The notes under the pieces: generated by a model
What the model was told of the DNA's origin: nothing
The model's database searches: none
The model's input: the letters and a program-made list of their open reading frames with translations, nothing else
Position numbers and translations under genes: made by a program
Shown: piece after piece, positions 38,095 to 51,965 of the stretch
How positions within the stretch are numbered: position 1 is the first letter of the stretch
Layout of the letters: each line of letters opens with the position of its first letter
Source: Monarcha castaneiventris obscurior
Lineage: Eukaryota; Chordata; Aves; Passeriformes; Monarchidae
Assembly (NCBI GenBank): GCA_026261815.1
Contig: JAMPIT010000258.1
Span: 9,911,501 to 9,975,500, forward strand
Length of the DNA stretch: 64,000 nucleotides
Direction: 5' to 3'

Positions 38095-38520
38095 TATCTT
38101 GGCTCATTTAGCTCCGCAGAGAAGCGGCCCTTTGAGTTGCGGTGCCACAAGTGAAAAAGCCACTGGAGGAAAAGAGGTGTTGAAAACAAATCCCCCTGCC
38201 ATTTTCATTCTGTGGTCATTAGCAGCGGCAGCGCCGTGCCCGTGGAGGCCAAGGGTGCCCCTGGTGACAGGAGGAATGGAAAGGAAGCAGCCTGGAAAGC
38301 ACATCCGAGCGGCGCTGTCCCTGCCCGACACACGCAGCCCGGCCATCACTTCCAATCAGCGCGGCAGGGACGGAGCGGCCCCAAAGGCAGGGGCTGATTG
38401 TGGTGCTGTCCCGAAGGGGAGCAGCTCAAAAGAACACGCAAGTGAGACCACAGGATTGCTAATTAGTGTTGATAGATGCGATCATTTCTAATTAGCTCAC
38501 TAATCCCTCTCCCCCTCTCT
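38095..38520. promoter_or_regulatory. Candidate enhancer: GC-rich block plus paired CTAATTAG sites
   Basis: A GC-rich 200-bp part with many CpGs and a CCAATCAGCGCGG site (about 38353) is followed by two identical palindromic CTAATTAG sites at 38459 and 38488, 29 bp apart, and then a TAATCC (OTX/CRX-like) at 38500. CTAATTAG is a strong LIM/paired-class homeodomain site. The arrangement looks regulatory rather than coding: the 130-codon plus frame through it has no known resemblance. Confidence 0.4.
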
Positions 38521-41635: not shown

Positions 41636-43301
41636 CCCAGCATTATTAGGGCACCATATATGTTCTTTCATTTGGAATATGGTTGTACCCCAAAAGGTAC
41701 ATATAAATAAAACATCCAGCAAAAACAATGCAAATGCTGTACAAAACTACCTGCCCCCCTTCAGATGAGCCCAGGTTCACAAAAACATCCAACAAAAGGG
41801 GCCAAGAGGAGTTCCCAAGAGGAGATCATGGTCTACTCAGATTGTGCTGCAGCCCTGCTTCAGGTTAGAGACAAAAGCATGAAACACCACTGAGCCAGTT
41901 TAGCAGAGCACGCTCTCATCAAGAGCTTCCTCTCATACTGAAGGACTCCACAATACCAAGAATTTCACAAGTCAGGCTCAGACTTTAAAAAAATATTTAA
42001 AATAAGGAGACTGCACATTGTTGGCCTGAAAAAAGATGGAAAGTGGGAACTTAGGCCTAGCTATCCAACTCTGATAAAGGAACAGTTTGACATCCTTGAC
42101 TCCAGAGACCTCTGTCACACAAAACAAGTCACCACAGAACAGCACCTCAGTGTATCTGAGCCATCTGAAGTCTCAGTGTCTGCCTGCCAGCACTGGCAGC
42201 TCTCTGCACTCGTCCTGGAGTGCAGAGCAAGCACCTGCCAGCAGTTACCTGTAACTGGTGCAAAGTAACTCATCTTTGCTCTATGACTTAACAGACTTTC
42301 AACAGTTTGCAGTTTTGCTGTCCCTCTGGGTTGATATTTAAAAATCCTGAGGCTAGTTCTGAATTCAGCTATGTCTAACTCATCAAAGATCTGGGTCAGT
42401 AGCTCCTATTTGCTTAAGACTACACTAAACATGGAGAGCTTCATGGAGAGCAGCAAACTCTTTTGCTATCAGCACACTCTAAAGCCTTTTGCTTTTTTGT
42501 TCCAGTAGATCTAAATAAACTCCATCAGCACAACATCAGAGGTGTTATTATGAACTATCACATCAAGAAGCTCGAGATTAATGAGAGTCCTGATAGCCTG
42601 AATAACCAAATTCTGACTAAATGTTACAAACTAAAGTAGCTACAAGCAGTACAAAACCAGATGACAGAACATTGTTACTGTGTACATGGTAAGTTCTGAC
42701 CTCTGAACTTTGAGAAAAGTTTCAACTTCTTCAGCTCTAATAAAAAAAGTTTCCTTTCAGCTTTTTTTTCCAATTTCAAAGCACAGAGATGGGCTCTTTC
42801 TGAAATAAAAGGACCTCTGATTTGTTTTTTTTAAATACCAGGCCACTGTCCACTAGAAATAGTTGTTTACTTGTTAGGAGCACCCAGAAATACAAGAATA
42901 GAAGCACCACCTCAGCATCCGTGGCTTTGAGAGAAAAAAAACCCCAAACAAAACAAACCATGACGTCAGATGATGGCCAGGCTTCTTCAAAGTTTACTGC
43001 AAGACCCAGCCGTGTGAGCTGTGAAAGCTCAGCAGCCGGGCCCCCCACACAAAACACGGATTTCGGGGCCTGCTTTATACCGGCTGGGGGCATCCCGGCG
43101 GTGGGAGCCACTTCCCTGGGGAGCCGGGGATGAGCGTGGGGGGCTTCACCCCCATGGCCCCTGCGCCCTCCCGGCACATCGAGGCCCCGGCGAGGCTGGT
43201 GGCGGCTCCGGGCCCGCGGCGCGGGGGGCGTGGGAGTGTCACCCAACTCGGCCCAACTCTGGAAACTTCGGAGGGGCAGGCGCGCTGGGGGCCGCACTCA
43301 C

Positions 43302-43344
43302 CGTTCAGCCGGGTCTGCCGGTTCGCTCGCACCCGCAGGAAGGT
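43302..43344 (-). CDS. RNF220: RNF220 window exon 3 (common to long and short forms)
   Basis: This 43-bp exon encodes TFLRVRANRQTRLN(A), a basic segment that leads into the NLS-like KMKRRKQ of exon 4. The acceptor is TTTCCCCTCTGCAG with a good branch-site-like CTGAC upstream; the donor is G|GTGAGTGCGG. It begins in phase 0, so it accepts either exon 2 (ending CAG at 47622) or the alternative first exon (ending GAG at 43500) in frame. It lies inside the CpG island, unusual for an internal exon and a sign that a promoter is adjacent. Confidence 0.95.
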
Positions 43345-43499
43345 CTGCAGAGGGGAAACAAGAGGGGAGAAGCGTCAGGACGCGGATGTGAACAGCTCGC
43401 CCCCCGCCCGCACACAAGGCGCGGCCCGGTCCCCCCACTCCCCGCGCATCCCCGGGACAACGCACCGTCCGCGGGCCTCCCCCCCACCGCAGCACGCAC

Positions 43500-43544
43500 C
43501 TCTTCCCGGCCCCCGCCGCCGGGCCCCCTCTTGCCGCTCTGCAT
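43500..43544 (-). CDS. RNF220: RNF220 alternative first coding exon (short isoform start)
   Basis: On the minus strand an ATG at 43544 opens 15 codons, MQSGKRGPGGGGREE, ending at a donor GAG|GTGCGTGC. The end phase is 0 and the next exon (43302-43344) starts in phase 0, only 155 bp downstream. The spliced frame reads GREE-TFLRVRANRQ and continues through all later exons. The surrounding CpG island, YY1 and CCAAT motifs supply a promoter. The product would lack the N-terminal region and the SUMO-type motif of exon 2, but keep the basic stretch, zinc finger and RING. The Kozak context is modest (GCGGCTATGC). RNA evidence is needed to prove use. Confidence 0.75.
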
Positions 43545-43625
43545 AGCCGCGGGTGCCGCGGGCGGGCAGCGGGCGGCGGGCCCGGGATGCGGGTGGATGC
43601 GGCGCGGCCCGGCGGGCGCCGCCGA

Positions 43626-43649
43626 TCAGCCCCCGGCGGCCGCCGCCAT
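43626..43649 (-). CDS. Short uORF in the alternative 5' leader
   Basis: An ATG inside the YY1 motif (AACATGGCGGC on the minus strand) opens MAAAAGG followed by TGA. It lies 105 bp upstream of the short-isoform ATG, in the same frame but closed before it. If transcription starts upstream of 43650 this 7-codon uORF could reduce translation of the short isoform. If it starts within the YY1 motif, as is common, the uORF would be left out. Confidence 0.4.
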   Translation of the reverse strand: MAAAAGG

Positions 43650-43652
43650 GTT
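43642..43652 (-). promoter_or_regulatory. YY1 binding motif
   Basis: Minus strand AACATGGCGGC is a perfect match to the YY1 consensus AANATGGCGGC. It is in the sense orientation usually found just downstream of a TSS in TATA-less CpG-island promoters. It fixes the likely start of the short transcript close to 43650-43690. Confidence 0.65.
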
Positions 43653-43660
43653 GGCCCCGG

Positions 43661-43668
43661 TCATGTGA
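43661..43668. promoter_or_regulatory. M-box / E-box-like site TCATGTGA
   Basis: TCATGTGA is the MITF/TFE/USF type core, lying 9 bp from the YY1 motif. Motif match only. Confidence 0.4.
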
Positions 43669-43700
43669 CCCGCGGCGCGCGGGTGAGAGTTCACCAGGCA

Positions 43701-43728
43701 GTTCCCATGACAACCGACAGGGGGCGGC
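43701..43728. promoter_or_regulatory. RFX X-box-like and CTCF/GC-box-like sites
   Basis: GTTCCCATGACAAC (43701-43714) fits the RFX pattern RYYNYY-N2-RRNRAC. CCGACAGGGGGCGGC (43714-43728) matches the CTCF core AGRNGGCRSY and could also bind Sp1. Both lie between the putative TSS and the first CCAAT box, a spacing reminiscent of X-Y box promoters. Motif reading only. Confidence 0.4.
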
Positions 43729-43746
43729 AGCGCCCGGCGAGCCCGG

Positions 43747-44403
43747 CCAATCAGAGCTCCCGGGACGGCTGGAACCCGGGCGACATGGCCAATCAGGAAT
43801 CAGGGGGTACTGGGACCCTGTGTACCTGACCAATCAGAAATCAGGGGGTATTGAGACCCTGTGTACCTGACCAATCAGAAATCAGGGGTTACTGGGACCC
43901 TGTGTACCTGGCCAATCAGAAATCAGGGGTTACTGGGACCCTGGGGTGCCTGACCAATCAGGAGTCAGGACCCATTGGAACCCAGGGGTCCATGATCAAT
44001 CAGACCCCACAGGCAGGTTGCCACCCAGCAGCAGTTAACCAATCAGAGCCTGGGAACAACCGGGCAGCAGTTTCCCTTGTCCAATAGTGATTGAGCACCC
44101 TTTAGGCCCAATGCCACTGGCCAATCAGAGGCTTGGCTCCAAAAATAACCCAAAGGCACTGGCCAATCAGAGGCTTGGCCCCAACAATAACCCAAAGGCA
44201 CTGGCCAATCAGAGGCTTGGCCCCAACAATAACCCAAAGGCACTGGCCAATCAGAGGCTTGGCCCCAACAATAACCCAAAGGTACTGGCCAATCAGGCAC
44301 CAGGGCAACACTCTCCAACTTCCTCTGCCCAGTCAGGGGCTGGGGGCCCAAGGGCTGTTGGCCAGTCAGGGTCCATAAGAGCCACAGGCAGGTGGCCGAG
44401 AGG
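43747..44403. repeat. Phased CCAAT-box (NF-Y site) tandem array, period about 42 bp
   Basis: Repeat units start at 43747, 43789, 43830, 43871, 43912, 43954, 43996, 44039, 44081, 44121, 44163, 44205, 44247, 44289, 44329 and 44362. Unit lengths are 42, 41, 41, 41, 42, 42, 43, 42, 40, 42, 42, 42, 42, 40 and 33. Twelve units begin with the exact octamer CCAATCAG, mostly after GG or GA as NF-Y prefers. Unit 7 has TCAATCAG, unit 9 CCAATAGT, and the last two CCAGTCAG. Off-register boxes occur at 44108 (forward) and 43974 (reverse, ATTGG). Two homogeneous subfamilies exist (units 2-5 and 10-13); the other units share little beyond the CCAAT core. It lies directly upstream of the internal RNF220 promoter, boxes reversed relative to that transcript. 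Confidence 0.9.
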
Positions 44404-46019
44404 CCTTTCCATGGCCCCTGCCCAGCCCTGGCCCTGCCATGGAGCCCTCATGGCTCGACTTCCCCTGGCGGGGCCGGCCCTGGGAAAGCAGAGCCCTGGG
44501 AAGTGGAGCCCTGTCCTTGCTGGCCGCTGACGCCGTCTGCAGCTGCCAGGGCCAGGCTGCGCATCCACCTCAGCTCCAGGGCTCTGACGCCGGCCCGCCC
44601 TACCCAGAAATGGCCCCTGCCATGGGGACACCTTGGCTACAGGAGGAGCCTGCGCTTCCCAGTCTCTCCTCTCTCTTTTCCTTTCTGTGTTTCAGCAAAC
44701 CTGGGAGGTCAAAGCTGTCTCATGGATTTCTCTCCCATATCTGCCACGCAGCTGTGGTGGAGGATGGCCCCAGCACACCAGCCTGAGGCTGGGACAGAGC
44801 TGGGGGCTACAAATCAGGCAGCAGAGGCTCCTATACACACAAATCCCATTTGTTCCCCTCTCTGCAGACTCCTCAGACTTTGTTTCCTGGAATCAAACCT
44901 GAATTTTGGGTTTCCTCCCTGGCACCTGACAGCCTGTAGCTTCTTCTTCAGATGGAAAACAAAAAACCCCCTGATATGTTTCGCTGCCCCAGATGATGAT
45001 GGGCAGCCGGACAGTTCAGGTGCTGCCTTGTGAGCTTTGCACAGTCCTGACTGTCCTATATCCCAGCTCTGTCTGCCTGCTGATCCTGCAGCTGGATTTT
45101 CATACATGTGCTCACTTACAAAACCAAAGCTGCCGATTGTTGGCTTTACCCTTGTACTGAATTGAGCTGCCTTTCGGGAGGCACACTTACCTGAGCTCCA
45201 GGGGAGGGAGGTGAGCCTTCCCTGGACAAGGATTTTAGGCTTTCAGTTACACTACACTTGCTATTCAGTCACAAATATTCTGTGGGCTCCCTTCAAGCCT
45301 GAAATGCCATCTTTGCAGTATGATGTATCACTTGTAATTTGCTGTTGATTTCTCCACTGGGTTTTATTCAGGGTTTTATCTAAATATAACTAAAATGGCT
45401 TTTTTTTTTTTACTCAAAGCTCCATCTGACAGAACATGCTGTATTTAAAGAGGAGCAGCCACTACTGACCAAATCCATTGGCTGCCACCACCTCGGTCTG
45501 ATCAGTGTCCATGGAACCAAACTCCAGCAACCAGGCTTGGCACAGGGGAGGCAAGAGGATCCCTCCTCTCCACATCCAGGAGCCACCCCACTGCCTTCGC
45601 TGGAGCTCCCTCTCTGCATGGGGAGCAATGCAGCGAGCAGCAAGTAGCCCAAGTACTGTGCCAGGCCCTATTTCTGTAGCACTCCTATTCATAAATCTCC
45701 TTCCCTAAGTATCCCCATGGTATATAAGCACAAAGACTAAGAAAACTGAGCCACAGGAATTCTGAAAACCCAAATGCCAGTAATTCACGTTCTAGCATGT
45801 TACTAATACACTGTATAATCATGATTAGAGCACAGCACAAGGGACAGTCATAATTCCAGCACACCTCTGCATATGGAAAGCTGAATTTTGCAGCCCTTAA
45901 AATCACCACCGTGAGAGTCTTCTGCTCTGCTTCCTGGGCATGTCCCTTGGTAAGTCAGGCAGACTGAATTCTCGTTCATATTGTGGCTTTTTAAGAATAC
46001 ACTGAGGCTTTACACACCC

Positions 46020-51160: not shown

Positions 51161-51449
51161 TGTCCAAGCCCTGTGCTTCCCTCCTTCCTCCTGCCCCTCC
51201 TGCCATGCTGGGCAGCCATGGCCCTACTCAGTGATTCCTTCCTGCCCCTTGGAGCCCAGTTGTGTGGAGAAGAGATGTGTCTGGCTCTATGGCTTTCCCC
51301 GCTTGCGTCCACCGATCCCGAGGGCACTAAGCCTTGCTCACGCTGCAAGGCTCACCCGAAGCGCTCCATGGACCGTGCAGTCCTGCAGAGACGAGCTGGG
51401 AATGTTTCAGCAGCTCACCGAAACTCGGAGCAGCACCTGGTTTACGCAC

Positions 51450-51850
51450 ACAAACACAGGGGCAGGTCGGTACGAATCAAACCTGCATCCTGTGTGCCGG
51501 CTGCGGCGATCCCGGCCCATCCATCCCCAGACCCGCTCCTCCCTCCTCGGCTGCAGAGGAGCCGCGGGCAGCGCTCGGGCAATGTCGGCAAGGACACACA
51601 CTTGGCCACCTCGCCGCCGGCTCCTGAGCCGCCGGGGCAGCTCGAGGGGAGGGGACGGGGGTCAGGGGGCAGCCGGCAGCCCCAGGAAATGGATGGAAAT
51701 TGGCGGAGCACGCCGCCCCCAGCCCGCAGCGCCGGCAGCCGGGGCAGGTGTCAGCGCGGGGACAGCCCCGCCGCCGGCTCTGACATTCTGCTGCCGCTCA
51801 AGGCCAGGCGTTCGAGAGTGTTAAAGTGCTGGGCTCCTGCTTTCTGAGAG
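51450..51850. promoter_or_regulatory. Second GC/CpG-rich island in the intron
   Basis: The segment is rich in CpG (for example CCGGCTGCGGCGATCCCGG and CTCGCCGCCGGCTCC) and lies about 3.7 kb upstream of window exon 2. It could be another alternative promoter of RNF220 or an orphan island. I found no first exon with ATG and a phase-0 donor that I would defend, though a noncoding first exon is possible. A 224-codon plus frame crosses it without family resemblance and is biased by base composition. Confidence 0.45.
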
Positions 51851-51965
51851 CCCTGGAAAAACGTAAGGAGTCTATTTTTCTTAAACAATCCATCACAGCT
51901 GCTGTCAGCAGAACAAATACCCTAACCCTGCTTTTTATGTATCTATATGGCCTTTTTAAATTTTC

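What the first reader, a model, noticed from the sequence alone, without database searches (positions are those of the whole stretch)
43747..44403. Helically phased array of NF-Y (CCAAT) sites next to an internal RNF220 promoter
Sixteen units, nearly all 40-43 bp long, each start with CCAATCAG or a one- to three-base variant; twelve are exact. The 42-bp period equals about four turns of B-DNA (4 x 10.5), so NF-Y dimers, which bend DNA and mimic H2A/H2B, could bind on one face over some 600 bp. Ordinary NF-Y promoters have one to three CCAAT boxes. The octamer remains in units 1, 6, 8 and 14, whose other 30-odd bases have diverged. This suggests selection on the site and spacing rather than simple minisatellite drift. 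The array could act as a nucleosome-excluding platform that keeps the internal promoter open.
Basis: partly seen in the sequence, partly recalled or inferred. Interest (0 to 1): 0.9.

Follow-up and report, generated by a model that had tools for sequence, protein, structure and literature searches.

The report
CCAAT-site array at bird RNF220 promoter
Upstream of a conserved second promoter inside what appears to be a bird RNF220 gene lies an old tandem repeat whose copies have drifted apart except for a likely binding site of the transcription factor NF-Y, so it is probably a working switch of a kind already known from a few other places.

Summary
The array is real: 16 units at 43747-44403, 12 with exact CCAATCAG, 14 of 15 intervals 40-43 bp. 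RNF220 lies on the minus strand. The array starts about 94 bp upstream of a YY1-type element in a CpG-island internal promoter, whose first exon (MQSGKRGPGGGGREE) splices in frame to the next RNF220 exon. Comparable short isoforms exist from fish to mammals. Among 10 unit lineages the octamer has 86% pairwise identity, flanks 32-35% (background 26%). Simulated uniform decay at the flanks' level never gave this. Three unnamed translated sequences show that the distal part is orthologous elsewhere. There, one unit stands where four stand here, and octamers are only weakly better kept than flanks. So part is minisatellite expansion and part looks like selection on NF-Y sites. Phasing is good locally, drifts at 10.5 bp and fits 10.4. 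Similar NF-Y arrays are known: LTR12/ERV9 U3 (about 41 bp) and the ABO minisatellite. Best reading: a functional NF-Y minisatellite, a new member of a known kind. NF-Y occupancy is untested.

The parts
43747..44403 (+). NF-Y (CCAAT) tandem array, 16 units, CCAATCAG on the + strand (CTGATTGG as read along the minus-strand gene)
43789..43953 (+). block A, units 2-5, 41-42 bp, flanks 82-91% identical: recent local copies
44121..44288 (+). block B, units 10-13, 42 bp, flanks 91-100% identical: recent expansion; a single copy in each of three orthologous sequences (contig collapse not excluded)
44329..44403 (+). decayed distal units 15 and 16 (CCAGTCAG), 33 bp apart
43051..43746 (.). CpG island (GC 0.75, CpG o/e 0.88; the scan called 43051-43851) of the internal RNF220 promoter; the array itself has CpG o/e 0.11
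43643..43670 (-). likely start-site region: YY1-type CAACATGGCGG (43643-43653) and near-palindromic E-box GGTCACATGACC (43659-43670); motif names recalled, start site not measured
43701..43729 (+). RFX X-box-like GTTCCCATGACAAC (43701-43714) and CTCF-like CCGACAGGGGGCGGCA (43714-43729) between array and start region; motif names recalled, matches only
43500..43544 (-). alternative first coding exon of RNF220, MQSGKRGPGGGGREE, donor GAG|gtgcgt
43302..43344 (-). next RNF220 exon, TFLRVRANRQTRLN, in frame with the alternative first exon

Best explanation
The array is an old, promoter-proximal minisatellite of NF-Y sites that works as the upstream activating region of the internal promoter making the short RNF220 isoform. 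NF-Y trimers (footprint about 24 bp) can sit on consecutive 42-bp units with about 18 bp between them. They would keep a stretch upstream of the CpG-island start region free of nucleosomes and recruit activators. Selection keeps enough sites working while flanks drift, and unequal copying adds or removes units, so copy number tunes output. Shown: the array, the gene context, the conserved isoform, site-specific retention among units, orthologous distal units in three other sequences. Inferred: NF-Y binding, nucleosome exclusion, effect on transcription.
For: Conserved columns among 10 unit lineages are CCAATCAG plus T at -3 and G at -2 (9 of 10 each) and a purine at +8 (10 of 10), as in an NF-Y site (matrix recalled). 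Octamer pair identity is 0.86 versus 0.32-0.35 in flanks, background 0.26. Uniform decay reached the octamer value in 0 of 20,000 simulations at retentions 0.35-0.5 (flanks match about 0.35-0.42), even choosing the best of 42 phases, and in 1 of 20,000 at 0.6. The nearest site lies 94 bp from a YY1-type element. The internal first exon is conserved. Distal units are present in three other sequences. NF-Y keeps promoters nucleosome-depleted in mouse ES cells (PMC6624317 abstract). ABO has a minisatellite of NF-Y motifs, and four-repeat versions give higher reporter transcription (PMC2988417 passages).
Against: No binding, chromatin or expression data. Three of 16 units (U7, U15, U16) have lost the CCAAT core and U9 has lost the octamer's second half. 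Across four orthologous sequences, octamer codons of U10/U14/U15/U16 are only weakly better conserved than flank codons (52 of 72 versus 146 of 270 pair matches; U10 and U14 alone 29 of 36 versus 86 of 126; fully conserved 7 of 12 versus 13 of 41, p = 0.09; six pairwise p 0.017-0.67). The simulation passes at mild decay (P = 0.06 at retention 0.75, 0.35 at 0.8), and its star model ignores shared history among U1-U6 and U9-U13.
Confidence: 0.62

Rival explanations
1. Only the one or two CCAAT boxes nearest the start site (U1, U2) matter; the rest is a passive minisatellite seeded by duplication of a promoter CCAAT box.
For: Blocks A and B are recent copies and B is single in three orthologous sequences; distal units 15-16 have lost the core; octamer preference across sequences in U10-U16 is weak. 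That ordinary NF-Y promoters use few boxes is recalled.
Against: U6, U8 and U14 keep exact octamers 207-542 bp from U1; the flanks of U8 and U14 are near chance and that of U6 is 59-68% like block A. Uniform decay at the flank level does not give this.
Confidence: 0.25
2. The octamer is kept by a copying mechanism (short-tract conversion or slippage seeded at the shared octamer), not by selection on protein binding.
For: Local copying is evident in blocks A and B. Phased CCAATCAG triplets also occur in viral contigs, where no NF-Y is expected: of 6 matching loci 2 were opened, with 42-bp steps (L001) and 36-bp steps (L004), both inside reading frames with 14- or 12-residue repeats.
Against: The kept columns include neighbouring bases that an NF-Y site prefers; conversion tracts confined to 11-12 bp at regular spacing are not a process I know of (inference).
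Confidence: 0.08
3. The array is the U3 region of an old endogenous retroviral LTR, as in LTR12/ERV9.
For: LTR12 U3 has 5-17 repeats of about 41 bp with NF-Y sites (PMC11853044 passages).
Against: No similarity to the array elsewhere in the window (nine 12-21-bp matches, all E = 4); it abuts a host CpG island and coding exon rather than R/U5. LTR ends and a tRNA primer site were not searched for.
Confidence: 0.05

Closest known systems
LTR12 (ERV9) U3 enhancer repeats
   Same: 5-17 tandem repeats of about 41 bp with NF-Y CCAAT sites; CCAAT mutation in the globin-locus copy abolished NF-Y binding and closed chromatin at the downstream epsilon-globin promoter (PMC11853044 passages)
   Different: Retroviral LTR with its own start site and GATA-2/MZF1 sites; a 24-bp CCAAT distance is also prominent (PMC4982600); the array here is single-copy in the window and next to a host CpG-island promoter
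ABO blood-group upstream minisatellite (CBF/NF-Y repeats)
   Same: Minisatellite of NF-Y motifs upstream of a host gene; four-repeat versions give more reporter transcription (PMC2988417 passages); dependence of transcription on NF-Y binding is stated by a cited title only (Kominato 1997). A period of 43 bp is recalled, not read
   Different: About 4 kb upstream of the start codon and with alleles of four or fewer repeats (the 'or fewer' recalled); here 16 units, some strongly diverged, starting about 94 bp from the start region
CCAAT dimer promoters of human c-Fos/NF-Y targets
   Same: Direct CCAAT repeats at helical spacings of 31, 41, 52, 63 bp (PMC4982600)
   Different: Two boxes, mainly 31 bp; not described as minisatellites in the passages read

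Membership tests
NF-Y homotypic minisatellite enhancer (ABO type) | tandem repeat with an NF-Y consensus in the units | tested here: met
   12 of 16 exact CCAATCAG, 13 of 16 CCAAT
NF-Y homotypic minisatellite enhancer (ABO type) | lies upstream of a promoter of a host gene | tested here: met
   alternative RNF220 first exon and CpG island; start site itself not measured
NF-Y homotypic minisatellite enhancer (ABO type) | copy number varies | tested here: inconclusive
   block B is 4 here and 1 in three other sequences, but those come from assembled contigs that may have collapsed identical copies
NF-Y homotypic minisatellite enhancer (ABO type) | NF-Y binds and transcription depends on it | not testable with these tools
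   needs ChIP/CUT&RUN and deletion
LTR12/ERV9-type LTR | dispersed LTR copies with U3-R-U5 | tested here: inconclusive
   no second copy in the 64-kb window; whole genome not searched; LTR ends not searched for
coding 14-codon repeat | every step a multiple of three bases, so that one frame runs through | tested here: not met
   6 of 15 steps are 40, 41 or 43 bp, so no one frame reads all units alike; block B alone (42-bp steps) is frame-preserving and open by chance

The most novel reading that the evidence does not exclude
The whole array is loaded with NF-Y at once. With kinks of about 80 degrees every 41.6 bp (mean of the first 14 intervals; 3.96 turns at 10.5), up to 13-16 histone-fold trimers curl about 600 bp into a regular superhelix that replaces about three nucleosomes upstream of the RNF220 internal promoter. 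About four turns would then be a recurrent solution, reached independently in LTR12 (41 bp), ABO (43 bp, recalled) and here (42 bp).
Probability: 0.12. Interest if true: 0.85.

Novelty: new member of a known kind. Interest (0 to 1): 0.5.

Why it matters
It is a natural series of NF-Y sites at one spacing, beside a conserved host promoter, with old and young units side by side. That makes the questions of how many NF-Y sites add up, and whether four-turn spacing matters, directly testable. NF-Y arrays of 41-43 bp in LTR12, ABO (period recalled) and here, apparently of independent origin (inference), would hint at a physical preference. RNF220 is reported to pattern the ventral neural tube in mice (PMC8988044, abstract start in the listing). 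A paper on the internal promoter was not seen: one search held 0 papers, one search listed 3 of 3 and one search listed 20 of 87, judged by titles and abstract starts; none of these was opened.

Tried and rejected
Whole-genome copies of the array: the genome search 'own' gave no answer in 5 of 5 tries. Rfam and tRNA scans of the window gave 0 matches. A viral-contig scan for three CCAATCAG with gaps of 28-38 bp gave 6 loci; 2 of 6 were opened and both matches lie inside repeat-bearing reading frames, so this served as a control, not as a source of relatives. Paper searches: held 0 papers; one search held 1, not opened; one search held 6, with no relevant array in the titles and abstract starts, none opened. 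A test of selection on spacing through indel rates was considered and not run. The reading frames that revealed orthologues must stay open, so they favour frame-keeping spacing and cannot test it. Counted by hand, on the codon positions expected: U9-U10 is 40 in P0122 as here; U10-U14 is 42 and U14-U15 is 40 in all three (U13-U14 and U14-U15 here: 42 and 40); U15-U16 is 33, 32, 32 against 33 here; U8-U9 is 62 in P0122 against 42 here.

Full report
What is there. Sixteen units occupy 43747-44403; 12 of 16 start with exact CCAATCAG and 13 of 16 keep CCAAT. Intervals are 40-43 bp in 14 of 15 cases, and the last is 33. Outside the array the 64-kb window holds two further exact copies, one on each strand. 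Two blocks are recent copies: U2-U5 (41-42 bp, flanks 82-91% identical) and U10-U13 (42 bp, 91-100%). Other flanks are near chance against most units, with residual similarity of U6 (z 3.7-5.5) and U1 (z 1.8-3.9) to U2-U5, of U9 to U6 and U10-U13 (z 4.0-4.7), and of U15 to U10-U13 (z 3.5-4.4). So the array descends at least partly from one repeat. Independent exact octamers number 6 of 10 lineages, not 12.

Where it lies. The organism is not given; best protein matches are birds (Muscovy duck 99% over the whole query, a turaco 100% over 85%), so I take it for a bird. RNF220 runs on the minus strand: exons at about 57066, 47717, 43344, 35782, 34641, 18627, 17534, 16152 and 14406. AG acceptors were seen for 9 of 9 of these and GT donors for 9 of the 10 segments shown, first exon included. 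At 43500-43544 an extra first exon, MQSGKRGPGGGGREE, splices in frame onto TFLRVRANRQTRLN. A search with this isoform found 269 proteins among 421 candidates, the best 120 listed. Of eight proteins fetched, two are array-frame proteins. The other six, RNF220 entries labelled Muscovy duck, skink, Xenopus, sheep, zebrafish and turtle, have a short N-terminus before TFLRVRANRQTRLN; the turtle model has extra residues in between. The internal promoter is therefore probably old in vertebrates. A CpG island covers it. Upstream of the exon come a YY1-type element, an E-box, an RFX-like box, a CTCF-like site and then the array, whose first unit is 94 bp from the YY1-type element (motif names recalled). 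No start site was measured.

Is the site kept more than its flanks? With one representative for each of 10 lineages, octamer columns have mean pairwise identity 0.86 and flanks 0.32-0.35, against 0.26 expected from composition. Conservation extends to T at -3 and G at -2 (9 of 10 each) and a purine at +8 (10 of 10). In 20,000 simulations per setting of uniform decay, letting the observer pick the best of 42 phases, the observed value was reached 0 times at retentions 0.35, 0.42 and 0.5, once at 0.6, and with frequency 0.006 at 0.7, 0.06 at 0.75 and 0.35 at 0.8. The flanks match 0.35-0.42; settings of 0.7 and above imply at least 62% identity over all columns, far above that seen. The flank identities in this test are ungapped, which lowers them somewhat away from the octamer. 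The model is a star and ignores shared history, which weakens but does not remove the result.

Other genomes. Because no vertebrate DNA was searchable here, a chance reading frame across U8-U16 was used as a probe. It found P0121 and P0122 (2 of 5903 candidates), and a profile search gave 8 proteins in all. Three of the 8 reach into the array. P0121 continues for 169 residues into the flanking intron at 85% identity, so the locus is orthologous. Each of the three has one unit where this genome has U10-U13. Collapse of near-identical copies in assembled contigs cannot be excluded. Octamer codons are somewhat better kept (52 of 72 pair matches against 146 of 270; U10 and U14 alone 29 of 36 against 86 of 126; fully conserved 7 of 12 against 13 of 41, one-sided p = 0.09; of six sequence pairs two have p below 0.05). 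U14 and U16 octamers differ between sequences, and U16 reads ANQ, which fits an intact site, in P0122 but is CCAGTCAG here. This is weak evidence at the distal end. The proximal half (U1-U7) could not be compared.

Phasing. At 10.5 bp per turn the 16 sites have resultant length 0.62 and drift by up to about 200 degrees; at 10.4 it is 0.88, and 0.88 for the 10 lineages. Neighbours are thus near one face, but the period is inherited by copying and is not itself proof. Six viral contigs carry three CCAATCAG at gaps of 28-38 bp. The two opened (L001, 42-bp steps; L004, 36-bp steps) lie in reading frames with residue repeats, showing that period plus octamer can arise without NF-Y. The array as a whole is not such a coding repeat, since 6 of 15 steps are not multiples of three, though block B alone would keep a frame.

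What is known. Human c-Fos/NF-Y promoters favour direct CCAAT spacings of 31, then 41, 52 and 63 bp; NF-Y contacts span -7 to +17 and kink DNA by about 80 degrees (PMC4982600, passages and section 14). LTR12 U3 carries 5-17 repeats of about 41 bp with NF-Y sites (PMC11853044, passages). ABO transcription depends on NF-Y binding to a minisatellite, as said by a cited title, and four-repeat enhancers go with more reporter transcription (PMC2988417, passages). NF-Y keeps promoter regions nucleosome-depleted (PMC6624317, outline and abstract). The array thus works most likely like these, and is a new, longer and partly old member of the kind. The listings (20 of 27 papers shown) show no avian or RNF220 example by title and abstract start, and held no paper; five papers in all were opened.

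Noticed in passing
51251-51901: Another CpG island (GC 0.64, CpG o/e 0.73) between RNF220 exons, possibly a further promoter.
   Followed up: no
38201-38501: Small CpG-rich stretch holding one of only two exact octamers outside the array (38352).
   Followed up: no
43701-43729: RFX X-box-like and CTCF-like matches abut each other between array and start region; motif names recalled.
   Followed up: partly
L001:82-6228: Viral contig with a 2048-aa reading frame rich in 14-residue repeats (SADWDSTYTSVSET), perhaps a tail protein.
   Followed up: partly
44464-44970: Intronic stretch beside the array is well conserved in an unnamed source (85% of 169 codons in a chance frame), though no exon is known there.
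   Followed up: no
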